Source of the DNA: Lineus longissimus
Lineage: Eukaryota > Nemertea > Pilidiophora > Heteronemertea > Lineidae
Assembly: GCF_910592395.1 (NCBI RefSeq)
Contig: NC_088308.1
Span: 11,115,001-11,179,000, forward strand
Reading direction: 5' to 3'
Length of the DNA stretch: 64,000 nt
Every line of letters starts with the position of its first letter. Positions within the stretch are counted from its first letter, which is position 1. Under the pieces are notes generated by a model. That model saw only the letters and a list, made by a program, of their open reading frames with translations, had not been told where the DNA came from and did not search any database. A program made the position numbers and the translations under genes. Below are positions 10,416-60,670 of this stretch, piece after piece.

Positions 10416-11181
10416 TTATTATAAACAGTGTCTTTGCTGCTACTGTTCTCGACCTTTATATATATGTTTATTCGTACTACTTTCCGTTGTACAGATAACA
10501 AAAAATAAGGTGCAATAAGACAATACAGAGTTGGGTGCAAATACAAGTTTACGATAAGGCAAACAAAGTAAAAGGTAAGACTGAGAGTCGAACCCGAAAA
10601 CCTCTCATTCTTGGAGATGATCCTGAATAAGTTACATTAGTATCTTGAACTATCACAATAAAACTAACACCAAAAACAATACTCCATCAAATCAACCTGT
10701 ACACAAAAAGTTAATTATCATGTCTATTTCCTCTTTTGTGAGAATATGATTCCCTGCCTCCCGCATTTCAAGCAATTCCCTAACTTGGATGGCAACCCTA
10801 TTATGCCCCAATCCCCAAAATTCCCTATTGATGTCCCTTAGCATTATACATTCATCAGGCAGCTGATCCCTATTCCAGTTGTACTTTTGTAACACCATAG
10901 TTAGACTTTTCCCCACTGATGAGACGCTCCCGGCAAATAATAATCCAACTGTAACCTTTACGAGTGTATTTCCTGATTTCCGCAGTCCTTTGATGAATTT
11001 TACGAACCTTTTCTCCAATTGAGTTTGAACGCTACAGTCCTTTATAATGGCTGGTAACAGGTCATTATGAGTGCGATATGGCAAACACAAAATCTGACGA
11101 ATACATTTACGCCATGCAATATACAATTCTTCCATGTATGGTTTTGAACAATCTAGCAACTGGTAACCATACAGCGGCATA
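10416..11181 (-). pseudogene. LINE B, 3' end of a second LINE
   Basis: A minus-strand open frame (about 11,181 to 10,692) encodes the C-terminal region found after the catalytic domain of many LINE reverse transcriptases: PLYGYQLLDCSKPYMEELY, then RKCIRQILCLPYRTHNDLLP. This ends at a stop and is followed by a 3' untranslated part. On the minus strand that part ends near 10,455-10,472 in AATAAACATATATATAAA, a polyA-like tail. A tRNA-like B-box phrase (GGGTTCGACTCTC) lies within the 3' part near 10,590. The element is strongly 5' truncated. The last bases towards 10,416 may belong to LINE A. Confidence 0.65.
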
Positions 11182-18499: not shown

Positions 18500-18656
18500 T
18501 ATGGGCGGTTATTTCCGCATAAATAGAGGTTGTCTCAAATAGACATTTTATGTCGTGTAATGACTCAAATAGACGTTTGGTGGCGCTTTTCAAATAGACA
18601 TACACTCAAATAGACGTTTGGTGGCGCTCGTATCTCAAATAAACATATACAAGAAA

Positions 18657-19559
18657 ATATGATGATTGCAACTCCCACCCTCCTTAAAGGGGTTTGCTGT
18701 GACTAACGTTCATGGTATTGACTGGTGGCTGAGATAACTGGTAAGACACAATGCTGTAAGTGCACTTGTTATGGAGGAGTGTTTGAGAGAGAGTCTCAAA
18801 GACCTTGCGTTTCTATGTCAAGTCCTTGCTATGGTATTGACTCTAACATGATTTGACAATACCCTAAACAACCCCAGACATGATATTCAGCTGCCTCTTA
18901 TAGTGCATATTAAGCCAGACAGTTTTATTTCCCGTCGAAAAAGTGCTCCAAAAATAGCCCACAATTAACATAGTTGCTTTATATCTCATAGCGTCCCAAT
19001 CAAGCCTAGAGCAGTGTGCAGGCTTGATGGCAAGCTCACAATAACCGGTCAGTTTTATTGACACGAATACATAATCTGTTGTAAACCCAATTGTTCTGAG
19101 GAGTTGACTATTGTGTATGAGGTCGATACACAAACAGTGTAGTACAGGAATTATTAAAGTCAATCATCCACAGACATCAATGAAAGTGAAACGCCTGCTC
19201 CCTGCTACACCAAGCACAAAACACTTCTTGCCTGAGAAACTAAATTGTAATCTCTTTATTTTCAATTGTCTTTTTGTTGTGTGATTTCTGAATAACAACT
19301 ACCCAGGCAGAACCTCTCTATTAAGGAAACAATTGGGACTGACAAGTGCTGTCCATAAAAGGGAGGTGACATCATTACAGAGGTCCAATTGTATAGTCAA
19401 TGATGTATTTGGGACCAAACTCACTGTTCTTGACAGGGAGAATGTCCCACTTACAGAGGTGTCCGCTAAGGGAGGTTCCACTGTATTCCATGATTATTCC
19501 ACATGCAACTCAATGATTATCTGATAAAATTTATCTGATGAATGACAATTATTTCTCTA
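18657..19559. other. Insert in left TIR containing a short MITE remnant
   Basis: This sequence has no counterpart in the right repeat. Within it, 19,306-19,485 has inverted ends (GCAGAACCTCTCTATTAAGG against CCGCTAAGGGAGGTTCCACT), a small TIR element. A related remnant lies at 40,470-40,545. No gene seen. Confidence 0.5.
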
Positions 19560-20641
19560 CTAGCATTATACCCGTGGCGCAGGCAGGTTCAAATGGGCTA
19601 TATCTTGATTAGATTGAATTGCAATGAAAATCTAATGCAATATCAAAGGAGCAATATTGAAGAGGCAAATTAAACCAACCATTTGTCCACAGACTCGGAC
19701 CTAGCTGTGGCGTGCTGTATGTGTGCATAAAAAGTGTATCAATTGGTCCGATAGATGAGGCAATGTCAATATGCCTCGTTCCTCAGTCAGCAATATGCCC
19801 CTTTTTATACGGAGAAGAAGGAGAACTCAGATAGGCCTTCACATGCGTCGGCTTCCAAATGTCTCGGGCAAGGCACTTAGTCGAAAGGCAAGCTAGAAGT
19901 TCAGCATCGTGAGCAGCTCCTTGATAAGGCCATGCCAAGTTCAGAGTGCCTCTTCAGATACATCAAGTATTGAAAGCTGTGGTGAGCACATAAACAGACC
20001 ATGGTCACCTTCATTTGAAAATTCCTTCATAATCAAGGGCTAGCTCCAATTAAAACAGCACCCATAAACAATAGACCATCAATTTGACCCAGCTCCTAAC
20101 TGCGGGAAAACCCAAGTCCAGCAACCAAAGTACCAAAAATACATTTTTGTTTACATTTGAACTGCACACATGCGTTTGTTTACAATTTCATTTCCCGCGA
20201 AATCGTGGATTGAAAATAACATTAACCTGGGTTCAGCAGGTCAGCAGGTATACCGGCTGTTCCAATCATCCCCCTACAGCCAGCTGTTCAAAAGGTAATG
20301 TTATTCACCCCAGAGGGAGTGCAGCAGGTCAGCAGGTATACCGGCTGTTCCAATCATCCCCCTACAGCCAGCTGTTCAAAAGGTAATGTTATTCACCCCA
20401 GAGGGAGTGCAGATAATTGATTAAGCCCCTGCATAATTTAACAGCAGCTGTAAGTGGTAAGGAGAATTGACAGTGTCCGATTAAAAATCCCTCATTACTG
20501 CTCCGCTGAAGTATATTTTTGAACAAAACCAAGACGTTGCATCAGGGTAAGGTGTCACCACAATTCATGCAAAATTTCAAGGCAATCCAACGCCTCTAAG
20601 TGTGACTTTATTCGTCCCCCTTCCAGTATTATTATATAGAT
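19560..20641 (+). mobile_element. Helentron-like non-autonomous copy (left TIR)
   Basis: It starts CTAGCATTATACCCGTGGCG and ends TATTATTATATAGAT. The same ends and body occur at 48,222-50,869 in the right repeat. No target duplication is present, and insertion lies in an AT/TT context, as expected for Helitron/Helentron insertion. Inside, a segment of about 91 bp (GCAGGTATACCGGCTGTTCC through CACCCCAGAGGGAGTG) is tandemly duplicated at 20,236-20,409. There is no Rep-helicase coding sequence. The family assignment rests on the termini and on the lack of duplication. Confidence 0.55.
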
Positions 20642-20946
20642 TGTCGTGTTTTTAGATTTTTGTATATAACTCAAATAGACGTTTGGTGGCGCTTTTCAAA
20701 TAGACATACACTCAAATAGACGTTTGGTGGCGCTTTTCCGCAAAAATGGAAGTTCCCCAAATAGACGTTGTGTGGCGCTGGCGCGCGGCAATTCTGGATT
20801 AAGTTTGGAATTGGTTTATCTGCCACGACGATATTATTGTTTTTGCTCTAAGCAGTGCACATGGCTATTTGCGCGCGTATCTGAGGAAAATCGACATTTA
20901 ATATCATTTCATTTTGATTGTAATTGGATTGTCAGTGTATTTAGCT

Positions 20947-23900
20947 ATGGTAGAAGAAGAGAGAAACAAGCGGAAGCGTAAGATGGTGAACCTGCTTCAC
21001 CAGGTCATTAATATTATGCAAACTGACATTGCCTCGGAGTCGGAGGATGCTGCAAATATGCCTACTCGGACTGACACGATGATCTCGAGTGTCCTCGAGC
21101 ATGTCGAGAATGCGGAGACCAGGCCGCCTGCAGCTGCCCGGCCTGCTGATAGGTTAAGAAGAATGCCAGCTGCCGCTGCTGGCAGCGCAAGCACAGCAAC
21201 AGGCACAGCCACAAGTACTCCTAGTCCTACTCCTAGACCTAGGCAAAGTGCAACTCGAGAATGGCCTAGTACTAGCAGTACTATTGATTCCAGCGCAAGA
21301 GTCACCACCACGGGTAAGCAATACTCCAATAGCATAGTATTAGTAGCCTACTTCAGTACTTGCTATGAGTTATGGTAGCATGAGGCCTAGGCTCAATGGG
21401 CTAGGCATGCTAGGCCTATTTATTAATCTTTATTAATTAGCTAATTGCCATTTGTCCTATATAGGCCTACCATTTTGTAGTTGAATTAACCCTTCGGGAA
21501 TCCTGGGAATGCTTATGTCCCACATGGTATTCAACTTTTCAAAGGGCCAATGTGTTTGATGCTGTCAATTAGGTTCCCTTTTTTAAGGCGATAACTCATA
21601 GTGTGCCCCAAACATGGATTTTCCAGTCTGCGATATACAACTAACACCATGTATATTATATCGGCCCCTACTGGTTCTCGAGGGGGGTTCACTACAATAC
21701 TTACTGCCCCATTTAAAGGGTTGCTTTTGTAGAGAGACTACGTGATATGAAATACAGTTAGGGGCCTCCACCTTGTAAGTAATCAGATCACATTTCCATT
21801 TCATCATTTCCATTATCTTATTAGTTTTTTATTTGTTTCAGACTTTCCATCAGCCATAGCTGAGCACCGGGCATTGTTTCAGCCCTATCCAAGAAGGAAC
21901 ACCACTGCCACTGCTAGTGCTAGTACTAGTACTAGTAGATATAATCGACGACATGTTGGACGCCAAGTATGTGTTGTGTAAACACTGTCTTTCTGTGAAT
22001 ACAGCTATGTACTGATTGTGGTCAATATTACTCTAAACTGCTAAAGTTAGTGATTGTGATATCGTGGTACTGGTAGGGTTAAACTGGCAATGGGAATGTA
22101 ACAAACTGCTTGAAACAACTTGAGAAAGAATGATGTGGTTTTACAATGGTTAAAAGAGTGGTTTTACAATGGTATGCACATCAACCTTTTGAAAGGTGCT
22201 CTGCTGAGACATGCTCTGATATTACCGGGTATCAGAAATGATCAACCAAAGTTTACTGAGCAAAACTGCTGATTGTTCTAAATAATATGATCATGCAAGG
22301 AGACTGGGTTTGTGTTGTCACAACGCTTTATATTGGAATCAGTTGACACCTTAAAAGAACCAAAAAATGCTGCTTTTTTAAAAGACGAAATTCAATTGTA
22401 AATCGAAAATCGGTTTCTGAGTAAGAGCTTGTAACTTTGCACTGAGTTGATTTTGATGAGATGAGAAGATTTTGAAATATTCTTTAAATGGTAGTTTATT
22501 TTTCAGACAAGTCAAGAACGATTCACCGGCACACGAGTTTCCCAGAATGGTAAGTCCTTCCCGCCCTAGCGCATGGTGACAAGGTATCACCTAGTAAAAA
22601 AAGGTTTTAACTTTTCTGATTAAAAAGGCATTAATTGATGCAGAAAAAAAATGCAGGAACCATGTTAATTTCTCTATGAAGTCAATCATGTTAAAGTCCA
22701 CTTTGTAGTAGTGAGATTGCAGTTGCAAACATTTCACCCCTCACCAAGTTTTTCTTATTTTTTAGAAAGAACCATCAAACGCTGGTTTCTCTGTCTGCAC
22801 ACAACAGATGCATGTGTAGTGCCAACAACAACACTAAAGTCCCAGTTATATGACTCAGGCCTGGGAGAAAGGGAAGTTGTATTTAGAATGTGCGATGATG
22901 CTGCTGCTGTGAAGGACAGCATATTCAGGTTTGTTTTTCTCATCTTTTATTAAACTGTCATTGGGTCAGATTTGATTATTCTTTCTTTCTAACATAGCTT
23001 GTTCTTATCCAGCGTACCTGTATTCTCTAGTATTTCAGCTCTGCAAATAGGCCTGTACCATTTGTTTAGATTTGTGTAGTATAACACGGAGATGGAAGAG
23101 TTGCAAAATGGACCTCATTGCCAGGCATACATTCTATTGATAATATCATCAATACGATGCATTTTTGTAATGTTTGGCATTTTGTCAGTCTTGTCTTGTT
23201 TTTAATGATAATGATGTTGGATTCTTAAACTAGTATAGCACAATTCCATGGTTTATCACCTTGCTCAATGCACTTTTAGGACTATTTTTATTATCTCGGT
23301 CTCCGCTGGATTCAATCTAGGCTTTCAATGAGCAGCTACTAACTAAGCGCTCAATCGAACTCCACCGAGGAAGTTCCTAAGTGGCAACTCCCTCGGGAAT
23401 CGAACCCACAACCTCTTCATCATGAGGCCGACGCCACCCTGGTTTTTATCACTAATCTATGATGATCATCATGCACTCTAGTAGAAATAAGAATATAGAT
23501 ATTGAGATATGTGATATTGAGATGTGTGATTTACATTCCTCCTCCGATTTTTTTCAGCACATTTCCGAAACTGGAGCAAACAGGGGGTTTTGAGGTGCTG
23601 AAGGTGAAGGAGGGCAGCCGCACTTGCCTTGATGTTATTCAAGTGGGATCATTCCCCTCTGCAAAGTTGCGGTCCTTTGGCACCAGCTCCTCTACCAAAT
23701 TATACCTTCGGCCATTGCAGAGGGACATCACCCTTGATGAGACTGCCAGTGCTGCAGAGGACCTCGAGGAATGTGTAGAGTGTGGGGAGTACTACCCCAT
23801 AGCTGAAATGCGTTCCCATAAGGAGGATTGCATGGTTAGAGGTTACACATGCTTCAACTAGGTTAAATAGCATTTTCGCGCAGTGCATGTCTATCATTCT

Positions 23901-26900
23901 AACTGATGGCACCACCAGTAAGAAAAGTGCAAAAGAAAGTGTGAAAAAAACACTTTGCCAGCATTTTTCCTGATGCCGTGCTACACCAGTCTTTTCTTTT
24001 AGAGTGCCCCCACCCCTCCCGGAGGAGAACTCTAAATTATCTCTAGGTGACCACACACCCCCCCCCCCCACACTGCCACAAAGGTGCAAAGATTAACCCC
24101 CCCCCCCCCCCCCCCCCCGGAAGAATGAAAGAAATAGCATTCAGATGAAAAGTAGGCAGGTTTATCAAAGTCCCCCCTGAAAAAAGCTACACACCAATTT
24201 CAGAATATTGGCAAACTGGTTATTTTTCTCCATACTTCAGAGATATAATGTTGAATTTGTCGAGGTGCCTTATGCAACACCTACAGATGATGTCCTTGTA
24301 TTCGAGGAACCAATCCTTGAGCCGGTTCAGGATTCGTTTGGATCTGCAGATCTGACCGCTGCCATAGGCAGCATCATTGACAACATGTGAGTACAGAAGT
24401 GTAGTGCATAATTTGGAAGTGCGCCTACACCATTTTTCTTGAAGATATGTGATGTATGGATCCTTATGTACATAGACTATTTAAATATGATATCAATAAT
24501 ATGATGGAAAATAGTTGCAGGTTTTGTATTTAATTCAACTGCTGATTTCTGACTTGGTCCCAAGTAGGCTGCCCTTGGGTGACAGTAATTTGTTCAGCTT
24601 CATATTTCATATTTTGGCCACCATGGGGCACTAACTTAATTGCATTTAAGTTTTAAACAAATTATCAATCATCCATTGTGCTCATGATCATGCCAATTAT
24701 GATAGCCAATATGGGATCTTGGGTATGGATCTAGAAATCCTCCCAACAATTTCCCCTTTTCATGTGACAAACTTTGTTTATCTTCCTTGTTCTTCTCTCT
24801 GCTTCGTGTCCTTGGTCAGCTGGTGAGCATTGTTTTTAATATCATTCACCATTTTAATTACAGCACAGCTGAAGACCCGAAGGCAGTATTGGCCGAGTAT
24901 ACAAAAGCCTTTTTACAGGGCAGACCACTTGATGTCGATGTTGAAAGATCTTTGACAATGGTGGGCGATGTTGAAGAAATCTTCTTGGACAGGGAGGAAA
25001 TTTTTCCAACTGCATTCAGTGAACTGATGCGAGGGCATGTAAATCGCAGGCTCCCTCTCCGGGTCAACCTACTCGGAGAGGATGTTGATGATTTAGGTGG
25101 GCCAAGACGAGAGGTCCTGACCCTGCTCCACAGGGAGGTACTCAATAATTTTGTGGCCAATGGATCATTGGTCACAAATCCCGCATTTGTTCGGCAGAAA
25201 AAAATTTGAGTTTGCGGGAATGATCTGTGGTAAGTCCATTCTCAATGGAACGAATAAACAAACAGACAATAAAACATGAACCTGTCATTTTGAAAAGATG
25301 TTGAACCAGAGATTCTCATCGGCTGATTATGAGTATTTGCCAAGATCGTCCAATAGGATCTGCTAGCCAAAATTACATCATCATCTAGAATTTCAAAAGT
25401 TACTCGGGGTTACCATGGTTACAGTCCAGTCTCGAGAGAAAAAGTAACTTTTTGCAGAGTTGGGGTCAAGGAGTTCAGATGTAATAAAATATTGTAGAGT
25501 TTTATATCATATCATTGGACTGAAATTATGAATTGCATATGAAGCTACAATAAATAGGCATATTGTAAAGCCTTCATTCGAGAGACAATACACCTAGGAA
25601 TTCTTCTCGCTTTTCAGCCCTATGCCTTCTCCAGGGAGGTCCACTGCCAAAGTTCTTCGGGCAAGATGTCGTGCAACATATGACATTAAATGGTGGGAAC
25701 GCTTCAGATGAATTGAAGCAGTTCATCAGAGGTTTGGATCTTTATGGAATAGTCAAGGTATATAGACTAGTCTACATGTACATTACTGGTACTAGCATTT
25801 TTTCAATGTGTATAACAAAACATCAGTTATCCTCCCAGGATTTTGATTAACTATGTTAACCAAATTCTGATTCTGCATTCTATGCATCACTACATGTGTA
25901 CAGTCTTAGTCAATTCGTTGTTAATTGATCCAAGAGCATTAATCTTTCAGCATTTTCCCAAAATTCACTGTTCCGCTGTGAACAAACATTATGAAAACTT
26001 GTGATAGAGGACATCATGAGTTCGGGTAACAGCAATAACCAAGACCGAATGTGTGTTTGGAGAATTGTGAAACAATGAATGATTTTTTCCTTCAAATTTG
26101 AATGTTTGAAGTCTGAATCATACATACACTGTAAACGTACTTTATGGATGGCTTCTCAAAAAGTCTCGACGAGCATGTTCAGCTTGAAAGAAGAAAGTAT
26201 CAGACTGAAACATGGTCCCAACAAGCAGTCAGTACTAGTATTATTAGCTAGCGCTGAGAGGGATGACTGCATTTCCCAGGGGTATCTGCATAAACGCCTC
26301 CACTGTTTGCTGATAATGTTTAGTCTCTCATTTCAGCTGATGGATAAAAACCCAGAATGCCGTATTTTCTTCAACAAGGATATGGAGAAAGAGACACCTC
26401 TGTCTGTATCGATTTTACTGAACCTGTTCCTCCCAACCCAGTATTCTGCTAATGGGTCTAATAGGAGACAGAAAGAAAAGGCGGCTATGAAATTCTTCAC
26501 TAAATGGCTTCGTGAAGTTGAAGGTAAGAATTGTTGAAAGAGGCTTCAGTCTTTTAAAGAACTCTACATGTATGTTCACATGGGGACAGGATATTGAATA
26601 AATAATTACATGAGAACATATACCAATCATAAATTCCGACTTATTATGCATTTATTCTGCACTGCTTGATCGAAGATGTAGAAGTCATTGCTCCTGCCTC
26701 ATAAGGTTTATTCACTCAGGCCACGAGTTCTGAAAAATATTAAAATTAAGTTACATGGTGTTTGGCAGGTATACTACTACTAGAATGTATGTCATAGTTT
26801 TGCAAGTGCCTCGGTGTATTATTGTACAATTGGACCCAATTCCATTTTAATCTTTACTTTCAGCTTGCAACAGGTATTTCATTCAACCAGGAGGAGAGGA

Positions 26901-27180
26901 GTCTCCTTCCAAAATAGACCTTGGCGACGCTCTGAGGTTTGTAACTGGGTGTGAACGCATCCCGTTATTTGGCTTCTCACCAAAACCAACAATGATTTTT
27001 GTGATAAAGGATTCAAGTGACCCAAATGTATTCCTCTTATCAGCCTCAACATGTACAAACATGTTGAGAATGCCCGTGGAAGGAAATGCTCTCTCACAGT
27101 TGGATGAACAATCCATGTTTCGTGTCTTCGATACATCATTCAGCTGTGACGGCTTCATGAAGGAAAGAATGGACACATGA
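20947..27180 (+). CDS. HECT-domain E3 ubiquitin ligase (transposon cargo, one frameshift)
   Basis: Ten exons with GT-AG borders: 20947-21313, 21842-21966, 22507-22549, 22766-22928, 23558-23834, 24241-24386, 24864-25229, 25618-25757, 26337-26523 and 26864-27180. All phases join. Exon 7 alone is one base too long, because of an A7 run at 25,198-25,204 that creates a premature stop. With six A the frame runs on to the donor. The product would be about 709 residues. The N-terminus is Ser/Thr/Ala-rich. A globular part follows (TIKRWFLCLH, KLYLRPLQRD), then a C2HC finger near residue 310 (CVECGEYYP, H, C). The HECT domain covers about 375-709, with DLGGPRREVLTLLHRE, ALCLLQGGPLPKFF, LRFVTGCERIPLFGF and the catalytic cysteine in ASTCTN near residue 667. 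HECT ligases form a thioester with ubiquitin before transfer to substrate. The closest style is the G2E3-like group. The first ATG is chosen as start; it lies 165 bp inside the TIR. Confidence 0.82.
23330..23445 (-). mobile_element. tRNA-derived SINE remnant
   Basis: On the minus strand the stretch contains a B-box-like GGTTCGATTCCC, preceded by GTGGCGTCGGCCTCATGATG, an A-box/anticodon-arm-like phrase. It lies in an intron of the HECT gene. The folding was not checked, and it could be a decayed tRNA-like sequence of other origin. Confidence 0.45.
24057..24118. repeat. Poly-C tracts in HECT intron 5
   Basis: Two runs of more than ten C lie close together, separated by an ACACTGCCAC-type spacer. 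Tract lengths in such runs are unreliable in assemblies. Confidence 0.8.
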
Positions 27181-27353
27181 AGTTAAAACAGGAAAAACAA
27201 ATTTTGCCTCCTCATCAGGGTGGACTCAATTTGTCCTTGTTTGTTGAAATAGGGACAAATGCACCTTTGGTTTTGCGAAAAACTGAAATTGCCTTGGTGT
27301 TTAAACACACTGATTTAACTGCTTCGATTATTTGAAATACATTGAATATCTTC

Positions 27354-27413
27354 TTTATTCATGAGTGCAACACAACATATATTTTAGCTGTACACATTTA
27401 CCCGATCTTTATT
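27354..27413 (-). promoter_or_regulatory. Candidate polyadenylation signals of the transposase gene
   Basis: On the minus strand AATAAA occurs at 27,413-27,408 and 27,359-27,354, about 200-260 bp after the transposase stop at 27,615. Both lie between the two convergent genes. Confidence 0.45.
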
Positions 27414-27614
27414 GATAAGATATCTCACTTAAACCCATGCATCATGCTTACATGTGGGCAAAGCAGTTTCTTTTGTAGTGAATTATGTATTTGTGTTTCA
27501 AAGAGCCATTGTCTGACAAAGTAGTTATACAGAGGTTGCGTAACTTTCCATTTTAGACAGAGTTGCAGCTAATTATGAGTGTACTCAACAACTGTATGAG
27601 CAGTAGATACATTT

Positions 27615-39600: not shown

Positions 39601-42600
39601 TTGGTCGGTTTGTAAACAGTTCTCTTCAGTAGGCCTATAAAGATTTGGATTATAAATGCCCCTGATCGAGATCTAATAAAAAAAAGTCCCGGTTATTTTA
39701 AGGGTGCATTAAATGGCAGATGATCCTATGTTATAAATCTCAATGCCTCTTAGTTTCTATCAAACATGTCAAATGCGCCCTGCACCTTTAAGTTGGGAAG
39801 TATCTCTAGTTACAGATTTACTGCTTTTCTTTGTCATCAAAGCAATGCTAAAAGTATGCCCTTACAGTGATCTTATCCCATCATACTCTAGATAATAAAC
39901 CTGCTCGCAAAAGACGACTAATTTACGACACATGGATTCCCTCTCCGTGCAATACAAAAAACTAATGCCTTTGTGGTCAATTTTACATTGGCTCTGTCTA
40001 TATAACCCATTAACACACGACCAATGCGAATCCCCGCACCTCATCGTACAAAAGACGATAAATCATGAGTTCACGAAAAAACGATTTTGCTCGAGAAATA
40101 AACCATACAGAGTGATAAATATCTGAATTAATTGCACTGCCTCAATATACACGACTACACGTAAAATCTGTATTTCCTAGAGTCCTACAAAAATGATAAA
40201 CATTTAAGATGTCGGCTTTGGGAATATCACATTCCTCGGGTCAGGCAAAAATTCCTTGCAAATATCTATATTTGATGGGATGGCAGACTATCTTTACTAA
40301 AGCACTAAACGATGGATGTTATATACCAGTAGATAACATTCTAACATCAGTTTTGGGACCTGATACAACATGTACAAGGGAAGTAAAAAAAGCCTTGAGT
40401 GTTGTCGGGTGCACCCTGAATAACTTGATGGATTCGTCAGGTTAGGATTAGACTGTAGCCTGAACAACTGTAATGGGACACCTCTCTATAGAGACAGCAA
40501 GTGTCAGTCCCAGGGAACCCGTTAATAGAGAGGTTCTGCTGCATTTAAAATGCAAGAATTGTCTTAAATCTTGTCCATGTACATCGGTTTTAACATGCCT
40601 AGTAACACAATCAAAGTTAACACAGAGTGACATTAGCGCTAGTGTTTAAAACAAACATTTAACTTGACTGATTTTCCCTCAGAAAAAATGCTTCCAAAAA
40701 GTCATCATACACGCTGAATTTCGATGGATTTTATTGCATTGAATGGCTTTCCATTTCAATACAGCTAAATCAGGCAAAACCTATTCAGATTCTTTACATC
40801 AAATATTACATTGGAGGATTTCCACTCCAACAAATTTGTTTTATGATACTTGGCGAACCTGCATAGCTTTTCATCAGGCCCCTTTCGGTTTTGTAATCGA
40901 CATTATGAACTGAATTTGGATGGCTTTCCATCACAATGATTTGTAAACGTGTTGATTACAAAGTGACACACTCAGATTATCATTATTCTATTTCGGTGTT
41001 AAAAAAAACCTCCTATGATATTAATTTAGTCAATTCGTAAATGGTATGTCCACGTCGTTTTGGGCTGTATGGAGCGCAAACTGTTCCTAGTTCCCTTAAT
41101 TTTAGCGTTATCCAGGAGGGTATTCTCACGTACTCGAATCTTCGAAACCTTGCTGTCCAGGTCACTAGTGGAAAGACGAATGCAGCTGCCGACCACAGGT
41201 TAAGGAGCCCTCGTAACCTTTTCGTGTGGGCCTGAAACAAAAAAAACAGAACATTCACATTTCATATTTAGATAATTGTCATGCACCCGGCCTAATTATC
41301 AATGTAATATCTCCTCTTAGTGAAGTTGAACTCTGTTACACAATATCCCAACCGAAACTGTATTTACGCCGTATGAAAACAAAATTTGCCAGCGTTCATC
41401 CTGGGTCTTTCGCACTGGGAGAAAGCCTCTTTTAATGGCGCAACATTGATGCTAGAGTGATCAGTGTGGGGATTCGGACAGTGTGAGCAAATCACCGTCC
41501 ACTATGGTTACCAAAGTTGCTAGCAGCTAGACGACAGCAAATAAATTGAAAGCACAGGCAGATTCAACCGCGAATATATGAACATTATGGCCGAACTCGC
41601 TGAGTACAATGCTGCCACTGCTTCTATGCAACTCCCAGTTGCACATTGATGGACAGTGGCCGAAATGACATATTCCTCCTTTCTATCACAAGAAGAGGGT
41701 AGAGGTGACGGCTGGATTACTTTCTTTGAGAGTCGGATATGCCTACACCACCCATTTGGTCACTGAATACATTGTTCAAACGCTGCAAAATTGCAATATT
41801 ATTCTAGCACATATGAGCCTTTGGCATGACCAATGGCACAATGATGTGATGGACTGTGGCCGAAATGACATCACTTCTTTCTATCACAAAACAAGTGGCC
41901 ATGAGGTGACGGATTAATTTCATTGAGAGTCAGATATATACCTTCACGAACAACATTCGTTCGTCATTTATAGTAGTACATCGTTGAAACGCTGACCAAT
42001 GCACTGAACCAGTCAATAAGTTGGGCTTCAGCGTCGCTCATCAGATGTGGAGTGTATTTAGCATATTCCTGTGCAGGCGTATAATTTCGATGTAGCCTCT
42101 GAACAAAGTGAGTGGCAGAATATGTACGCGAGCATAACCTACTCGCGAAAATATCCTAATACCGGATAATTTTCTATTCTAGTCAGATCTGAGGTAAATT
42201 GGGTAACCCATAATGATTGTACCCCTTCATAGAAATTCTTTATTACACGCATTATAATATTGATTATATTACTCGAACATTATCAAGAGAGAAAACCAAT
42301 CATGCTTATGGTCGGTTTTAGTGGATTACTTTCTTAGGTACCCCGTGTCTTCATGCATATGTAGTGTTCAGGCGTTTTTTGCATTTTTTTTAGTTTGTAC
42401 CAGAGTCATGGTTTCAATGCTTTTCACATGCTCCCCGAAGAGAAATGTGTCGACCTATGTAAATTATTGTTTGGAATACTTAAAGGTGGGGGATGGGGGG
42501 ATCATTTCTTTTTAACACCTACCTGAATATCGTCATTCCTTCACAACTCTGACAAAAATTATCCAACCTTGTATATAAGGTGAACTATAACCTCGAGACA

Positions 42601-45600
42601 TTCTTGAAGGCAATAGCATCTTATGGCATCCATTCTGTCTATTACACAATCCTCCACATCGAAGTTCTTTTTTCGCACAATATTCAAGTGCAACGATGAA
42701 TGTGTTGGGAGATACGAAGCATAAGCGTCCACATCTGACTCATCTTGCTGTCTGTTTCCTGATTCTGAAGAAAAGAAATACAATATAAGTTTACTTCTTT
42801 CCTATGAAACCCATCGAATTCATGTTCAAGATGCAATGGAAAATGCTTTCACGGGTTTTTACAATTCAATTTTTGCTTGGGGACGGCCTCACTCTGCCAT
42901 GGGGACACCATGGAACTCCGGTATTCTGTATACTTTCCTTAGCGAACCATGGTGATATATGAATATGATGTGATATGATATGTTCAAAACCGTTTTAACG
43001 TTATTTTCCTTATTTCTAGTTGAACATGTTCGAAGTCCCCATAAAACTCTTTGTACAGACTTGCGTTATGTGTACATACTGCACGATGTTAACCTGCACA
43101 AGGTCTCTTTCAAGTCAGGTAACGCAGGAAAACCAGTCAAAACATTAGGCCTATACATCGCGTTTTTGGGTTAGGTGGCCATAGGGGAGGTTAATTCTCT
43201 TGATTGCCCCTCTACTAGCCAGGAAGGGCCTTATATCACTTTTGAGTTAACATTAGTAGACGACCTAAGTACAGTTTAGTCAAGTTAACGAAAGATGAGA
43301 GTACATTTTGACTTAAGCTCGATGTTGTAAACCTCGCAAAACCTTTCAGGTTGTGTGGCCACACTGTACGTTTTTACCGCGTTAGTTCATTTTTTAAGAT
43401 ATATACTAATTCTCTCTCACGAAAGAAACTGATCAGTCGCTTGGCATCCGTGCTTAAAGGGTTAAATGTCAACGTAACGAAGGGAAAAATACAATTTGTC
43501 AAAAAACACCTCAAAGATTTTCTAAGATGGGGTATGAGGAAATATTATTGGGAGGGCCTAAGTGCAGGTTATCTGGACACACTGTTCGTTTTTTACATCG
43601 TTTGTTCATTTTGATTATCTCTCACAAAAGAAACAGATCATTCGCTTCGCGGCTAATGTTACGAAAGATGACTACAATGTATATCTGTCAAAAACACTAC
43701 CAAGATGTTCTAAGATGAGGCATCAGTGGCCACTATACCCTACGCTCACTTGCACAAGGGCCACGGAGAGACTGTCATTGTGTGGAATGATAAGCGATAT
43801 TTATTTATGAACCAACAAATGTGTTTTGCTCTCTTCCAAATCACTGCGTATGACGACGGGGTGTTAAAATTAAAAAAATAAGAAAGAAAAAATATGCAAA
43901 ATCTTGTAACCGAAGATATCCACTGATCGACCTTATTGTCTGAACCATTGAATCTGAACCATGGGCAGAAGAAAGGACCTGATGAAAAAGGCCCGAGTAG
44001 CCTATCTTCATCTTGATGTTGAAGTGAAAAAGTCGACCGGTTTTCACAGAGGACTTCAAATCCAAAAATGTAGGCCTGCATTGTAAGATTCCTTAATAGA
44101 ATACATTATCATATACGATTACAAACCTGTGCTGTTTTGATGATAATATCCACTGTAATTCCAGTAAAATCCTTATACGAAGAACTCATGAAATACACGA
44201 CTGCTAACTCTCATCCATGTCATCACCATTGAAATGTGCGCGAAATTGATGGAATGTGACCTACTCCAGATTCTAGGCCATCTCTATTGTTTAGTTCGGT
44301 CCAGGCACTCGGCTGATGACACAGGAAAAAAGCGTATATAAACTGTGTCACTCCCGGGAAGTCCTCGATATAGGGCAAACCTGCAGAGACCGCCACTGGA
44401 CAGTGCCCGTTGGCGAAATTTTTTTCTGCAGGATACTTCTGCCACAGTGTACATCTGACAGCCAATCACAATTGGCGCGATCTTTGACGTCACACTGTTT
44501 ATTTATGCATGATAATGCAAATACAATGGACGATACCGAGTCGCATGCCGAGTGCCACTTCAACTGTGAATGTGACAATAATTGTCTGACCCCAAGTATG
44601 CTCAACTCAAGGTTTGTGTCGTAGTGTTTAGGAATGAATTGCACAGATTCATTGTAAAATTGATGATATTATGCGTACAAAAGAGGCATCAGCTGATCTG
44701 ATCCTACATTGCAGTGCATGCATTGATTTGTGAAATTTTAAGGGGCAGTGACACTGACAGGGTTGCCAATGTTGATAATTATTAAAGGGACAGTGTATCC
44801 GATGTCTCGCGATTTGTGAAATTTTAAGGGGCAGTGACACTGACAGTGTTGCCAATGTTGATAATTATTAAAGGGACAGTGTATCCGATGTCTGCTGTTG
44901 AAGGTATCAGGCCTATTTTGGTAGTTTGAACATTGTTGAAGGGCCATTGTATAAAACACATTTTGAAAAGCAAACAAAATAAAATTGAATGGTGGCGCCA
45001 CCTATGCATATACAGCAGAACTAGTTACACGGTTGACAGATAAACATTCAACCTCGGCTATTTTGCCGAGCACAGTGCGCCTTAACAGACAAGTCCAATA
45101 AATACAGTCCACTCGACAATGAAAATACATGTTAAGATACTGCAAATAAATATATTTTAGCTAATATACTCCTCTAACCATTTGCTAACTTGTTCTTTCC
45201 AAGATTATCAGAAAACGTGGCATTGTTGACATTATTGCGCCATGTGGAAAGATGATGTCAACAAAGACACGTGCTTGCCTTGAATTCTGATTGGCTGTCA
45301 GATGTACACTATGGCAGAAGTATCCTGCAGAAAAAAATTTCGCTGCCCGTTGTATATTGGGATAGAGGGGACACCAATCATGGTTATGGGGACATTGTAT
45401 CTCCATCGATTAAGGCATTTTAAAGCGTTATGTCTCGACCGTATAAAGTGGACCGGCCTTTGGCAACTTAACGCACTTCGTGTCCATTTAATAGAGTAAA
45501 AAAACCATTGAAGTCAACTTAACAGAGGGTGAACAAAAGTACGCATACATGTACTATGTACCAAGGCCATCATGTACATACTAGTATGTAATATATTAAT

Positions 45601-47810
45601 TGCACTCTTACAGTTTGACTATCATGATACCTAATAGATAGTTGATAGTTGTAATACAATTCTCGTCGTCGAGCAGGTTTTGGGATGATTCTCAGATGTT
45701 TCCTTACTGTAAAATATCTTACCGTATCAACTTGTGGTGTCCATCGATGTGCCAAAGAGATAAAGGTGACTTCACCTGATATTTGCGACGTCGTATGTGA
45801 CGAATTTGTCTAATGGTGCCCCCATTTGGGTCAACCCTCCACATAGAACTACGAAGCCTGTGTTGTTGTACTCTAATGTCTTGTCGACGAAGGTCACCCT
45901 CGATTGTCTTAAATCCTGGAATTATAGGAACATAACATTACAAGTGGGCTACAATCATAATCCTGAGCCAAGTAGTATTGAAAACTATGACATAATAGAT
46001 TTGATGTCTGAATTGGTGAATACTGAAAAGAGGTCATTTTTAATTATGATAGCCACATTTGGTTGTTGCATTACCTGCCTTGCCTCCCAGAAGACTGAGG
46101 TAATAGATTCCTGTAACGCACAGTCTATGATCGACCGGTGAGTCTACTGTGAGCCATTCAATTGTGAGGTAAGACATGTAGGCCTATTGAATGGGAATGC
46201 GATAAGAAGGGGTGAAAAAGTGACTGTTGCCCTAACGTTAATCCAATACAAAAGAAAGACAAGTCTATTCAAGGTAGACATCAAACCCCACTGTACACCA
46301 GAGGGTCGATCGGAGAATATAACATAGCATAAATATTTTTGTCCTTGAATTGTGATTTAGGACAACGATTTTGACCATATGGTGCCACATGTATAGCGAT
46401 AGCGGAGTAAAATCTATCTTTGCTTGTACAGCAGTACAGCGATCCATCGTGGGTGTCACCCATAAGGGCTGCATTTCTAATGTCGTTTGTGGTATGGATA
46501 ACTGATTGAGGCACTACTATATGAATCAGTATTGATACTGTGCCCACTTTAATATGCATACACTGTTCCTTTCCTGATAACATAACTATCACTGCAATTT
46601 TCGATTCAATCTCCTAGCAGTAGTTTCAACACACCCTCACCTACTTACCAGCATTTGGAAAGATTGACATTACTGAAAACACCTTGGAGTCAAGAATTTC
46701 ATCATCTATCTCGGTATATTGGGCACGTATGGATAGACCACTATCTCTCATTTTGTTCTCAATGGTCCTTTTAGAAACATTCAGTATGTCAGCAATATCT
46801 TGCACTTTGAATCCTTCACCTGAAATTACAAATGTATTTGTAATATGGCAAATTCACCAATTCCACCAGTAATATTTTTTACAACTAGAATTGTCCCATC
46901 ATACCACAATTCAATTTCAGAGTAAATAGATCTATTACAACAAAAGCTTAAATATACAATTACAAATATATAAAGTATTTTAGTACTGTAACTGAGCATG
47001 ATATTAATGATACAATGTACATTGTAAGAATAAATCAATTTTGAGGCCAATTTTGTGTGGAGTCAAATAAGGCATGGCCTGGTACTGGTGTGAAAAAAAT
47101 GGGTGAATACCATTATTTTTACACACTTTAAAGAATTGTTCATTTGCCTGATTGGGTGCAATAAATAATGGAATGGATAGACTGCAATATTATCAAGGTC
47201 GTAGGTGCTTTTGACACAGGGCAAAATTAAATGGATGCAGCTAGGGAATGACTAAATGGCAGGCATTCCATTGACAGACAGAAGGGCAATTTTACAGGAT
47301 AGTCCGACTGTGGCCATCAGTGTGGGTGTAATGACAGTGGGGGGCGGGGGTCCACGGGGCACAGCCTATGCTAGCATGCTAGGCAGCAAAAATAAGCCAG
47401 GAAAATCAGTCTTCAGAACAAACCAATTAATTCTTACCCAATAGATATCCAATCTGCCTTTCTGCTCCGGAAGTCAGGATGGGACGTCTACCCCTCTTCT
47501 TCATTGGTTCAGCACTGACAGCAGTACAGCCATCGGGAGTATGCCTGCTGGCAGAAAGCCAACTGCCACCACTAGCCACAGCCGAAGTTCCATCTCCATC
47601 ATCTATTGAAATCAAATTCAATACCTGCAGCAAAAGACCTGGGATCGTTTCCACAATCGCATTTCCAATGCACACATCAATGGAATCACGAACCACAGAC
47701 TCCACCATAAAAAACACATTCTCTTCAACATCGACATCTCTGTCGATGCAACCTTCAATCTCTTGAATGATACGACTGACACGCCCCGCCAAGTGTTCCA
47801 TCAAGGCCAT
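27615..47810 (-). CDS. DDE transposase, IS3-like/integrase-core type, intact over five exons
   Basis: Exons on the minus strand: 47810-47438, 46819-46649, 45915-45723, 30292-29740 and 27842-27615 (stop 27,615-27,617). All introns are GT-AG, phases 1, 1, 2 and 0 agree, and the total is 1,518 bases for 505 residues with no internal stop. Exon 1 ends with a basic AT-hook-like KKRGRRPIL. Exon 2 holds a helix-turn-helix ([20 protein letters not shown]). Exon 3 carries the first catalytic Asp ([12 protein letters not shown], near residue 237). Exon 4 is the integrase core: the second Asp in [10 protein letters not shown], and Glu 37 residues later in [12 protein letters not shown]. Exon 5 is an acidic C-terminus. 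This is the RNase H-fold cut-and-paste family catalogued as IS3EU, as far as I recall. Intron 3 is 15.4 kb because another element sits in it. The open frame extends upstream of the chosen ATG to 48,011 without another ATG. It starts beside the right TIR and converges with the HECT gene. Confidence 0.88.
27843..29739 (-). other. Transposase intron 4
   Basis: AT-rich sequence between transposase exons 4 and 5. No nested gene or clear repeat was recognised. Confidence 0.6.
30892..31030. mobile_element. 139-bp MITE, TA-flanked
   Basis: The ends are TAATAGGGAGTTTTCGC and GCGAAAACTCCCTATTA. Similarity extends further inward (GTCAACGCGAAC against GTTCACGTTGGC). If the outer TA is the target duplication, the element fits a Tc1/mariner-type MITE. 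It lies in transposase intron 3. Confidence 0.65.
32918..33955 (-). pseudogene. Decayed tyrosine-recombinase (Crypton-like) C-terminal region
   Basis: The minus-strand exon 33,955-33,760 (phase 0 acceptor, GTAAGT donor) reads [18 protein letters not shown], then VDIHKEA, a TAG codon (33,875-33,877), then [19 protein letters not shown]. In tyrosine recombinases the nucleophile lies about nine residues after the GH histidine. The stop is exactly there. The next exon starts at 33,489 ([17 protein letters not shown]) and is a charged, Lys/Ser-rich tail. It changes frame at A-runs and ends near 32,918 with a Myb-like [16 protein letters not shown]. Upstream exons with the Arg-His part of the catalytic set were not found. 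The family resemblance is to animal Crypton-like YR proteins, from memory. It is clearly non-functional. Confidence 0.6.
34000..37070. other. Unassigned interior of nested element
   Basis: No gene supported. Minus-strand frames at 35,664-35,867 and 35,923-36,186 have no recognisable domain and could include decayed upstream exons of the recombinase, but I could not show this. Confidence 0.35.
37075..38535. repeat. 50/46-bp minisatellite, about 30 units
   Basis: The unit contains GACCGAAAGGTTGTGACTAT followed by GTCCCTGTCTTAACCTACAC. Full units are 50 bp (ending TATACATAAG), and a shorter form is 46 bp (TATAAG). Units are nearly identical in the middle (37,400-38,100). They diverge at both edges, where GTCCCCATCTTAG and GACCGATAGGTTGTTACTA variants dominate (38,330-38,535). 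Confidence 0.95.
38540..41460. other. Unassigned interior of nested element
   Basis: No gene supported. Open frames at 38,809-39,057, 39,054-39,260 and 40,209-40,445 lack domains. 40,470-40,545 is a small TIR remnant (CACCTCTCTATAGAGAC against GTTAATAGAGAGGTTCTGC). Confidence 0.4.
41465..41945 (+). repeat. Single foldback end and ~215-bp tandem duplication
   Basis: TGTGGGGATTCGGACAGTGT at 41,465 matches the end of the 9,261-10,415 foldback element for over 100 bp, without an inverted partner nearby. Immediately after it, a segment with GTGGCCGAAATGACAT through TTGAGAGTCGGATAT (about 41,650-41,730) is repeated at about 41,860-41,940. Confidence 0.6.
43270..43735 (+). repeat. ~210-bp tandem duplication
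   Basis: Segments around CACACTGTACGTTTTTACCG (43,362) and CACACTGTTCGTTTTTTACA (43,576), with their flanks, are diverged copies about 214 bp apart. Part of a third copy precedes them. Open frames of 60-87 codons here are by-products. Confidence 0.55.
44406..45350. repeat. Inverted repeat with 86-bp tandem duplication inside
   Basis: 44,406-44,470 (TTTCTGCAGGATACTTCTGC, then ACATCTGACAGCCAATCA) recurs inverted at 45,289-45,350. Between them, 44,741-44,910 holds two copies of an 86-bp unit with AGGGGCAGTGACACTGACAG. It could be a small foldback element. It lies just inside the right end of the nested element. Confidence 0.65.
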
Positions 47811-48221
47811 CTTCTCCGGATTAACGCAAACCCCGAGTGTTTTGACGAGATATAAAATCAGCAAAGAAATAATCAACAATCTGTCTGCATTTCCTGACAA
47901 TACATAAGCATCAAATGTACATGCAATACATGCAATAACGCCGCCGCTTACCGCAATGATAATGTCAATATCGCTGTCGCCGTCGTTAAAATTGATTCCA
48001 GCGCCACACAACGTTTATTTGGGGAACTTCCATTTTGCGGAAAAGCGCCACCAAACGTCTATTTGAGTTATACACAAAAATCTGAAAACACGGCAGTATA
48101 TGTTTATTTGAGATACGAGCGCCACCAAACGTTTATTTGAGTGTATGTCTATTTGAAAAGCGCCACCAAACGTCTATTTGAGTTATATACAAAAATCTAA
48201 AAACACGACAATATATGTTTA

Positions 48222-50869
48222 CTAGCATTGTACCCGTGGCGCAGGCAGCTTCAAATGGGCTATACCTTGAATAGATTGAATTGCAATAAACATCTAATGC
48301 AATATCAAAGGAGCCATATCGAAGAGACAAATTAAACCAACCATTTGTCCACAGACTCGGACCTAGCTGTGGCGTGCTGTATGCGTGCATATAAAAGTAT
48401 ATCAGTTGGTCCGATAGAGATGATGAGGCAATGCCTCGTTCCTTAGTCAGCAATATGCGCCTTTTTATACGGAGAAGAAGGAGTACCCAGATAGGCCTTC
48501 ACATGTCGGCCTCCAAATGGCTCGAACCAATTGCACTATCACTACTATAACTTTAAAATGCGTGCTCCTCCTACATATAGCCAGGTCTCGGGCAAGGCAC
48601 TTACTCGACAGGCAAGCTAGAAGTTCAGCACCGTGAGCAGCTCCTTGATAAGGCCATTTCAGGTTCAGCGCGCCTCTTCAGATCAAGTACTATTGAGAGC
48701 TGTGGTGAGCACATAAACATACCATGGTAACCTTCATTATCACGGGTTAGCTCTGGCTAACACAGCACCCATAAACAATAGACCACCAATTTGACCCCAG
48801 CTCCTTACTGCGGGAAAACCCAAGTCCAGCAACCGAAAGTACCAAAAATACATTTTTATTTACATTGAACTGCACACATACGTTTGTTTACAATTTCTTT
48901 CCCCGCGAAATCTCGAAGATCAGGTGACCTACAATCGTGGATTGAAAATAACATTAACCTTAGTTCAGCAGGTCAACACGTGGGTTCTAAAGGAACTTAG
49001 TAATGAACTGGCAATACCGCTAAGTTTACTTTTCAATAAGTCATTGAATGAAGGAAAACTGCCGTCCGATTGGAAGAAGGCACAGATCACAGCCTTACAT
49101 AAAAAAGGAAGTAAGTCTGACTGCGGAAATTATAGGCCGATAAGCCTAACATCAATAATATGCAAAATCATGGAGGATTTTGTAAGGACCAGGTTAAACG
49201 ACCATCTAAGAGCTGCTGTATCCAAATCTCAACATGGCTTTCAAAAGGGAAGATCTTGCATTACACAGTTACTTGAATCAATGGATAGAATAACGGAAAT
49301 CCTTGACAAAGGACATCCTGTAGACGTAATCTACCTAGATTTTTCAAAGGCTTTCGATTCAGTACCCCATGAGCGATTGAAAGTCAAGCTGAGAAATTAT
49401 GGAATAAAAGGCAAGATTTATGATTGGGTCTGTGACTTCATTACTGACAGAAAGCAAAGAGTCATGGTAAATGGATCTGCATCGGCCTGGACATCAGTTA
49501 GGAGTGGAGTCCCCCAAGGCAGTGTTCTGGGCCCAACATTGTTTGTCTACTATGTAAATGACTTACCGGAGTGTGTTGAGAACTTTTGTGAAATGTTTGC
49601 AGATGATGCCAAGATTATTGCAAGGATTCGAAGCCCTGCAGATAGTATAGGATTGCAAAGGGATTTGATCAGCCTAGATTACTGGTCACTTAAATGGCAA
49701 TTAGGTTTCAACACTGATAAATGCAAACGAATGCATTATGGGCGAAATAACAATCATAAAGAATACTTCCTGACAAAAAATGGTATAAGAAATGAAATTA
49801 AAGAAACTGACATTGAAAAAGATTTAGGAGTCACCTTCGATAACAGACTTAGCTTCAGCAAGCATGTAGAAACTGTGGCAAATACAGCCACCAAAGTGGT
49901 AGGCATGATCAGGAGATCTTTCGAATACCTGGATTCGAAGATGTTTGCCATCCTATTTAAAAGCCTGGTGAGACCTCACCTAGAATATGCAAACGTGATT
50001 TGGTCGCCCCATTTGAAGAAAGACGTAACAGTGCTGGAAAATGTACAAAGACGTGCTACTAAGATGATTCCAGGTATGAGGGACAAAAGCTACGAAGAGA
50101 GATTAAAGCTCGTAGGTTTACCTAGTCTTGCATATAGAAGGTTACGAGGAGATTTGATAGAGGCGTATAAAATCTCACATGGATTTTATAATATTGAAGG
50201 AGAAAAACTACTCAGACCAGCTGATGATAAACACCTGACCAGAGGGCATTCTTTTAAACTCAACAAACCTAGAGCCAGGATGGATACACGAAAGTATTTT
50301 TTCTCAAACCGAGTCATTGACCCATGGAACAGCCTACCGAACCATATTGTTAACGCCGAGTCTCTAAATATATTTAAAAACCAGATAGATGCCCACTACA
50401 AATCTGAGTCATTTAGTCTGGACCCAAAACCAATCCTAAACCCTCGCTTCCACCCCACCGCACTCCCGCAATCAGCAGAAAAAGTTAAGAAGAAAAAACC
50501 TGCTACAGGCTAAAAAGCCTATTTGCAGTAATATATGTATGTATGTATGTATGTGTACAGGCTGTTCCAATCACCCCCCTACAGCCAGCCGTTCAACAGG
50601 TAGTGTTAGTCACCCCACAGGGAGTGCAGGTGATTCATTAATCCCCTGCATAACTAAACAGCAATGGCTTGGCTTCCGTGAGTGGGAAGGAGAATTGACC
50701 GTGTCCGATTAAAAATCCCTCATTACTGCTCCGCTGAAGTAAATTTCCGAAAATAAACATGACGTTGCATCAGGATAACATATCACCCGCAAACGTGCAA
50801 AATTTCGAGACGAAACACGACCCCCAAATGGCACTTTAGCGAGCCGCCTTATAGTATTATGATATAGAT
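48222..50869 (+). mobile_element. Helentron-like copy (right TIR) with LINE inserted
   Basis: It starts CTAGCATTGTACCCGTGGCG and ends TATTATGATATAGAT. The host repeat reads straight across as GTTTA/TTTGAG, as seen undisrupted at 48,096. Without the internal LINE (about 48,976-50,560) its length is about 1.06 kb, like the left copy (1.08 kb). It lacks any Rep-helicase gene. Confidence 0.6.
48977..50513 (+). CDS. LINE reverse transcriptase (CR1/jockey-like), 5'-truncated, open
   Basis: The frame is open for over 500 codons and encodes the reverse transcriptase of a non-LTR retrotransposon. The palm blocks appear in order: ITALHKKGSKSDCGNYRPIS, LDFSKAFDSVPHERL (first Asp), SGVPQGSVLGPTLFVYYVND, and FADDAK (the catalytic YxDD-type pair), followed by a thumb and a C-terminal FSNRVIDPWNSLP typical of CR1/jockey groups. 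The endonuclease and ORF1 are missing. The upstream codons back to 48,924 belong to the host Helentron-like sequence. The 3' end carries (TATG)n at 50,535-50,552 and then returns to the host. No start codon of its own is expected. It is dead on arrival, but young enough to have no stop. Confidence 0.88.
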
Positions 50870-51008
50870 TTGAGATACGAGCGCCACCAAACGTCTATTT
50901 GAGTGTATGTCTATTTGAAAAGCGCCACCAAACGTCTATTTGAGTCATTACACGACATAAAATGTCTATTTGAGACAACCTCTATTTATGCGGAAATAAC
51001 CGCCCATA

Positions 51009-60665: not shown

Positions 60666-60670
60666 CAACA

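What the first reader, a model, noticed from the sequence alone, without database searches (positions are those of the whole stretch)
18500..51008. Very large cut-and-paste transposon that carries a HECT ubiquitin ligase
Matching inverted ends enclose an intact DDE transposase and a HECT E3 ligase gene, arranged head-outwards and converging. Each gene starts within 200 bp of its terminal repeat. HECT ligases are host regulators, and a ligase as a standing second gene of a DNA transposon would suggest that the element controls host or transposase protein stability. The inverted repeats and both genes are seen in the sequence. The functional link is inference.
Basis: partly seen in the sequence, partly recalled or inferred. 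Interest (0 to 1): 0.92.

Follow-up and report, generated by a model that had tools for sequence, protein, structure and literature searches.

The report
Transposons that carry a ubiquitin ligase
A group of jumping genes in a marine ribbon worm carries, besides the enzyme that moves them, a second gene for a ubiquitin ligase, kept in the same place in many quite different copies, which suggests that these parasites tamper with the cell's protein-tagging system.

Summary
At 18500-51008, 141-bp inverted ends (100%) enclose an intact five-exon rva_4/integrase-type transposase (505 aa) and a ten-exon HECT ligase gene, converging, each starting 166-188 bp from inner terminal-repeat sequence. The 32.5-kb size is secondary: a second copy (C7) with both genes is 13.2 kb; the window copy has swollen by a 15-kb intron insertion and retroelements in both repeats. 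Its HECT frame is broken by one extra base; the C7 HECT frame is open. Neither copy has a target duplication, but 10 of 10 gene-less copies with both ends have an exact 6-bp one and TA..TA termini, as described for IS3EU.

Genome-wide (Lineus longissimus, inferred), 30 of 56 HECT loci lie within 20 kb of an rva_4 gene, 27 of them converging (shuffled maxima 7 and 4 in 1,000), with transposases 28-100% alike. A second family, with other ends, holds both genes between matching termini with a 6-bp duplication (AATGCC). The catalytic cysteine is present in all three families read. So the ligase is a standing second gene of these transposons. I found no report of this in the papers searched. Its target is unknown; other species could not be tested.

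The parts
18500..18650 (+). Left terminal inverted repeat, outer part; terminus TATGGGCGGTTATTTCCGC
   Evidence: 100% complementary to 50868-51008 over 141 nt; same terminus at other copies
19550..20635 (+). Truncated non-LTR retroelement inserted in the left terminal repeat
   Evidence: direct repeats with 48212-50870, 76-95% over separate blocks; no such block in the C7 element
20636..20781 (+). Left terminal repeat, inner part, with tandem subrepeats
   Evidence: inverted repeats I3, I8, I9 with 47998-48216
20947..27180 (+). HECT-type E3 ligase gene, 10 exons (20947-21313, 21842-21966, 22507-22549, 22766-22928, 23558-23834, 24241-24386, 24864-25229, 25618-25757, 26337-26523, 26864-27180)
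   Evidence: exons 1-7 equal NCBI model P0121, Lineus longissimus LOC135486700, up to the frameshift stop
25205..25205 (+). One extra base relative to the C7 copy; shifts the HECT frame
26864..27180 (+). HECT C-lobe exon; catalytic Cys codon 27052-27054
   Evidence: Pfam HECT E 7.1e-8; aligned to solved HECTs
27615..47810 (-). rva_4/integrase transposase gene, exons 47810-47438, 46819-46649 (helix-turn-helix), 45915-45723, 30292-29740 (core), 27842-27615; 505 aa
   Evidence: retroviral-integrase-like fold of P0001
30483..45537 (.). 15-kb later insertion in the third intron of the transposase, flanked by an imperfect 13-bp repeat
   Evidence: absent from the C4 and C7 copies
47998..48216 (-). 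Right terminal repeat, inner part
48212..50867 (+). Non-LTR retroelement in the right terminal repeat, with a reverse transcriptase frame at 48795-50513
   Evidence: Pfam RVT_1 E 2e-34; no such block in the C7 element
50868..51008 (-). Right terminal inverted repeat, outer part; terminus ..CCGCCCATA

Best explanation
This is a damaged copy of a two-gene cut-and-paste DNA transposon of the IS3EU kind. A helix-turn-helix plus DDE integrase-type transposase acts on TA..TA terminal repeats and makes 6-bp target duplications. The second, converging gene encodes a HECT ubiquitin ligase and belongs to the element: it has travelled and diverged with the transposase in many families of this genome. Both genes start just inside the terminal repeats, so the repeats probably hold both promoters. 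Shown: anatomy, pairing, termini, duplications, conserved catalytic residues. Inferred: the ligase is active, and it ubiquitinates a protein that limits transposition. A host silencing, repair or cell-cycle factor (about 0.45) is somewhat more likely than the transposase itself (about 0.3), because a ligase aimed only at its own transposase would more readily be lost. The confidence below is for the two-gene element, not for the target.
For: Second full copy with both genes in the same order, 97-99% alike. HECT genome search (111 matches, 56 loci) against rva_4 search (150 matches, 121 loci): 30 of 56 within 20 kb, 27 converging; all 18 within 5 kb converge; jitter null mean 1.4 near, maximum 7, converging maximum 4 in 1,000. 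20 of 56 HECT loci lie over 300 kb from any rva_4 locus; 19 of these look, by eye, like host genes. Family 2: C1:19659963-19669479 encloses transposase and HECT C-lobe with duplication AATGCC at both ends. Four copies of that family (C1:19.66, C17:1.91, C12:9.35, C4:14.90 Mb) each have the converging HECT; of five equal-scoring copies of another (C20:9.22, C4:17.85, C11:9.39, C16:9.18, C20:6.18 Mb) four do. Cys motif in three families: STCTNMLRMP, SSTCANILKLP, SNTCANLLRLP. DDE residues invariant in 58 aligned rows. 6-bp duplication and TA..TA in 10 of 10 gene-less copies with both ends.
Against: Both two-gene copies of this family lack a target duplication. Neither is intact in both genes: HECT is shifted in the window, and the transposase 3' end is shifted in the C7 copy. 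HECT dN/dS between the two is 0.59, not significant (p 0.18). A converging HECT was found at only 27 of 121 rva_4 loci. 3 of the 30 near pairs are not converging. Several TE-type HECT loci have no transposase within 20 kb (C17:5.13, C14:10.76, C17:1.69, C20:7.34, C7:12.88, C7:13.58 Mb; C4:16.43 and C11:5.69 Mb). No HECT was found beside the 77% transposase at C11:5.78 Mb. The window-family HECT is short in the part of the N-lobe where HECTs bind their E2 enzyme (the site is recalled, not tested).
Confidence: 0.9

Rival explanations
1. The HECT gene is a passenger: a host gene captured once by this transposon family, with no role in its life.
For: HECT dN/dS 0.59 is not significantly below 1; the window HECT frame is broken.
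Against: The pairing, in the same orientation, spans transposases 28-100% alike and families with different ends, and the catalytic cysteine is kept in all three families read. A passenger would decay or be swapped.
Confidence: 0.07
2. Chance neighbourhood: the HECT genes and transposases merely share repeat-rich regions.
For: Transposons cluster; some HECT loci are unpaired.
Against: 30 of 56 near against at most 7 after jittering within 1 Mb; 27 of 30 converging against about a quarter in the jittered sets; one duplication encloses both genes.
Confidence: 0.01
3. The pair is real but regulates the element itself: the ligase lowers transposase level, limiting copy number (self-control).
For: Both genes sit head-outwards at the repeats, which would allow shared control; element-encoded regulators are known from other transposons (recalled).
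Against: No direct evidence either way; a self-limiting gene is expected to be lost in some surviving lineages.
Confidence: 0.3
4. The 18500-51008 pair of ends is a chimera of two insertions joined by rearrangement, not one insertion.
For: No target duplication; retroelement pieces in both repeats.
Against: Ends are 100% identical, and the gene order equals that of the C7 copy, which however also lacks a duplication.
Confidence: 0.3

Closest known systems
IS3EU/GingerRoot DNA transposons (PMC10045372; passages and section 3.3 read)
   Same: TA..TA termini, 6-bp target duplications, integrase-like transposase without an HHCC domain
   Different: The text of that paper holds no word HECT or ubiquitin; here a HECT ligase is a regular second gene
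KolobokP (PMC9587614, seen in search listings with title and abstract start only)
   Same: Animal DNA transposons with an added gene besides the DDE transposase
   Different: Different transposase; the added gene is a His-Me endonuclease
ULP1/SUMO-protease genes in Mutator- and CACTA-type elements; OTU proteases in Helitrons (recalled, from no call)
   Same: Ubiquitin-pathway genes carried by transposons
   Different: Those remove modifiers; a HECT ligase adds ubiquitin
'G2/M phase-specific E3 ubiquitin-protein ligase-like' genes of animal genomes (recalled, from no call)
   Same: Recalled likeness of the HECT and upstream segments, also the large copy numbers
   Different: Not compared here; whether they are transposon genes was not tested

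Membership tests
IS3EU/GingerRoot superfamily | TA..TA termini | tested here: met
   window, C7 copy, gene-less copies and the family-2 copy all begin TATGG or close to it; one end of L013 reads TACGG
IS3EU/GingerRoot superfamily | 6-bp target-site duplication | tested here: met
   10 of 12 family-1 copies with both ends, plus the family-2 two-gene copy; not in the window or C7 copies
IS3EU/GingerRoot superfamily | DDE integrase-type transposase with N-terminal helix-turn-helix and no HHCC zinc domain | tested here: met
   rva_4 hit, weak HTH hits (best E 6.5e-4, below Pfam cut-offs), no zinc-domain hit; invariant D182, D239, E276 in P0001 numbering; integrase fold
IS3EU/GingerRoot superfamily | Grouping with reference IS3EU transposases in a tree | not tested
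   no reference IS3EU sequences at hand
HECT E3 ligases | HECT domain with catalytic cysteine in the C-lobe | tested here: met
   PF00632 over its cut-off in three families; TC motif aligned to solved HECTs
HECT E3 ligases | N-lobe with E2-binding subdomain | tested here: inconclusive
   N-lobe start aligns weakly with SMURF, WWP and RSP5 HECTs; the subdomain looks short in the window family and longer in the C12 family (read; site recalled)
HECT E3 ligases | Ubiquitin transfer activity | not testable with these tools
   needs a biochemical assay

The most novel reading that the evidence does not exclude
An old lineage of animal DNA transposons has kept its own HECT ubiquitin ligase since before its families split, uses it to disarm a host control on transposition, and is the source of many of the expanded, unexplained HECT (G2/M-specific-E3-like) genes annotated in invertebrate and fish genomes.
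Probability: 0.4. Interest if true: 0.9.

Novelty: new variant of a known kind. Interest (0 to 1): 0.75.

Why it matters
It would be the first ubiquitin ligase shown as a regular second gene of a cut-and-paste transposon lineage, as far as the papers I could search go. It makes testable the question of how DNA transposons act on host protein control. It also offers a simple cause for expanded HECT genes in animal genomes that might otherwise be read as host family expansions: in this genome about half of the HECT loci found (30 of 56) sit beside such a transposase.

Tried and rejected
Searching HECT relatives in the 5.8-billion-protein set found only the locus's own protein, twice; sequence divergence and low-complexity words probably prevented more. 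Relatives of the transposase in viral contigs: none of 10 pattern matches. In bacterial/archaeal genomes: three short contigs of a sponge-symbiont MAG, probably sponge DNA; I saw no HECT-like frame by eye, but they end 0-2.1 kb past the transposase, so they test nothing. Large gene-less copies L009+L010 and L011+L012 have intact duplications, but the long frames inside look like nested insertions, not cargo (by eye, no domain search). A first HECT dN/dS run had a frame slip after the indel and is superseded. Literature, seen as listings: (10 of 10 searches used, with 40 and 42 on other words). None listed a paper on HECT in an IS3EU/integrase transposon. Searches listed papers holding only part of the terms; of the 1,481 papers I saw 15, none with the E3 name. 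The one paper with all of 'HECT domain', 'DNA transposon' and 'transposase' (PMC8195603, passages) uses them in unrelated places. The GingerRoot paper is not held.

Counts. One dropped row, C7:13568178, would add another converging pair. One search scored 150 of 214 candidates, so rva_4 counts are lower bounds. One search used 17 of the 47 HECT rows, one or two per locus.
Full report
OBSERVATION. The window is G000:C1:11115001-11179000 of a 391-Mb genome in 30 contigs. The host is inferred to be the ribbon worm Lineus longissimus: two predicted proteins of that species match the genes of this locus (P0001, LOC135485554, the transposase without the helix-turn-helix exon; P0121, LOC135486700, identical to HECT exons 1-7). 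The inverted arms 18500-18640 and 50868-51008 are perfect over 141 nt; a second, inner pair (20636-20781 and 47998-48216) is the rest of the same terminal repeat. The quoted 20-mer occurs 313 times in the genome, 0 in the reversed control; in the listed part (the first places, C1-C4) many sit in short inverted pairs or arrays.

GENES. The minus-strand gene has five GT-AG exons and codes for 505 aa without a stop: Pfam rva_4 (E 1.1e-71) preceded by weak helix-turn-helix hits. The core D, D and E are invariant in 58 aligned sequences. The predicted structure (of P0001, which lacks the helix-turn-helix exon; mean pLDDT 79.7) matches retroviral integrases best (E 3.8e-6) and also the IstA transposase. 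The plus-strand gene has ten exons. Its last exon is a HECT C-lobe over Pfam's cut-off; N-lobe and C-lobe stretches align weakly to solved HECT ligases (best whole-sequence E 6.5e-4), with the catalytic cysteine in place. The upstream part holds a possible C2HC zinc finger (E 0.072, below cut-off). In the window one extra base at about 25205 shifts the HECT frame. The genes converge with 434 bp between stops; starts lie 166 and 188 bp from inner repeat sequence.

NATIVE FORM. A second copy at C7:15982501-15995734 is 13,234 bp long, carries both genes in the same order at 97-99% identity, and lacks the retroelements and the 15-kb insertion. Its HECT frame is open over 709 aa; its transposase is shifted in the last exon. 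Thus neither copy is intact in both genes. C7:15741648 shares the 15 bases left of the element and is truncated, so it is probably a later duplicate, not an insertion. On C4 a HECT-side piece (HECT matches from 13019073; homology to the window followed from 13023000 to element position 10330) and a transposase-side piece (from element position 11083) lie about 193 kb apart and are nearly complementary; one split element is the simplest reading, not proven. The 77% transposase at C11:5778002 had no HECT match in the 6 kb fetched downstream of it; a HECT fragment lies 90 kb away.

TERMINI. Of 15 sources put into, 12 have both ends: 10 gene-less copies all have exact 6-bp duplications; the window (TAGATC/CTATAA) and C7 (GTAATC/CTTCTA) copies have none; three sources show one end only. 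Eight of the ten gene-less copies were searched for both genes without a match; the other two (L001, L004) are 428 and 654 bp long, too short for either. TA..TA termini with 6-bp duplications are what is described for IS3EU (PMC10045372). Why the two gene-bearing copies lack duplications is open; rearrangement after insertion is possible.

IS THE LIGASE A STANDING GENE? Protein searches of the own genome gave 116 transposase matches and 47 HECT matches. A Pfam search found 111 HECT matches and 150 rva_4 matches (150 of 214 candidates scored). Merged: 56 HECT and 121 rva_4 loci. 18 HECT loci lie within 5 kb of an rva_4 locus, all converging; 26 within 10 kb (24 converging); 30 within 20 kb (27 converging, 2 divergent, 1 tandem). 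Moving the HECT loci by 50 kb to 1 Mb with random strands gave at most 7 near and 4 converging in 1,000 trials. 20 HECT loci lie more than 300 kb away; these include the strongest Pfam matches and are, but for C17:5.13 Mb (44% like the window HECT), probably host genes (judged by score and exon pattern, not tested). The remaining six lie 21-78 kb away: C7:13.58, C7:12.88, C14:10.76, C17:1.69, C20:7.34 and C1:19.59 Mb. HECT matches at C4:16.43 Mb (190 kb) and C11:5.69 Mb (90 kb), found only with the window's own HECT, are also unpaired. A converging HECT was found at 27 of 121 rva_4 loci; a number of the rest are short or stop-ridden matches, and HECT detection is weak.

The paired transposases listed are 28-100% identical to the window's over the matched part. 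Four copies of one family (C1:19.66, C17:1.91, C12:9.35, C4:14.90 Mb) each have the HECT 1.2-1.3 kb from the transposase match, converging. For this family the left end was found by comparing C12 with C17 (TATGGCAAGCC..). An 18-mer of that end occurs 441 times in the genome, 0 in the reversed control. The C1 copy, 19659963-19669479, has matching ends and the duplication AATGCC on both sides, enclosing the transposase match and the HECT C-lobe match; the rest of the HECT gene was read at C12, not in this copy. So a single insertion carried both genes, in a family whose transposase is 43-52% identical to the window's. The HECT cysteine motif is STCTNMLRMP here, SSTCANILKLP at C14 and SNTCANLLRLP at C12.

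SELECTION. Window against C7: HECT 7 synonymous and 14 nonsynonymous differences (dN/dS 0.59, p 0.18); transposase exons 1-4, 8 and 8 (0.29, p 0.015). The first does not show constraint on HECT at this short distance. The kept cysteine and open exons in families whose HECT pieces are about 30-46% identical are the better evidence.

MECHANISM. Shown: a two-gene element with integrase-type transposase, TA..TA ends and 6-bp duplications, with HECT as regular partner. Inferred: the ligase is active and its target limits transposition. I put host factor above transposase, without direct evidence. The window-family HECT seems to lack much of the part of the N-lobe where HECTs bind their E2 enzyme (recalled site), while the C12-family HECT has more sequence there, so activity may differ between families.

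NOVELTY. In the searches named under Tried and rejected no listed paper joins HECT with such a transposon. Most subscription papers and Repbase itself are not searchable here, so a database entry could already note it. Association in other species could not be tested.

Noticed in passing
19550-20635 and 48212-50867: Two copies of one non-LTR retroelement family sit at nearly the same place in the left and right terminal repeats, both on the + strand although the repeats are inverted; two independent insertions at a favoured target are likely.
   Followed up: partly
30483-45537: A 15-kb insertion in a transposase intron, flanked by an imperfect 13-bp repeat, with inverted 149-bp arms (31651-31799 / 45390-45538, 93%) that are terminal only on the right; nature unknown.
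   Followed up: partly
36980-38550: Minisatellite of about 50-bp units within the 15-kb insertion.
   Followed up: no
L009+L010 (C1:10724926-10737550) and L011+L012 (C1:12230207-12246727): Large gene-less relatives of 12.6 and 16.5 kb with exact 6-bp duplications; their length seems due to nested insertions.
   Followed up: partly
60636-62033: Another reverse transcriptase frame (RVT_1 E 1e-33) outside the element.
   Followed up: no
C14:2.48-8.07 Mb: Eleven degraded rva_4 fragments, several with near-identical scores and stop patterns, spaced along this stretch and all on the + strand; looks like a repeated segment.
   Followed up: no
L051-L053: rva_4 transposases on contigs filed under a bacterial symbiont of a sponge; probably sponge DNA in the assembly.
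   Followed up: partly
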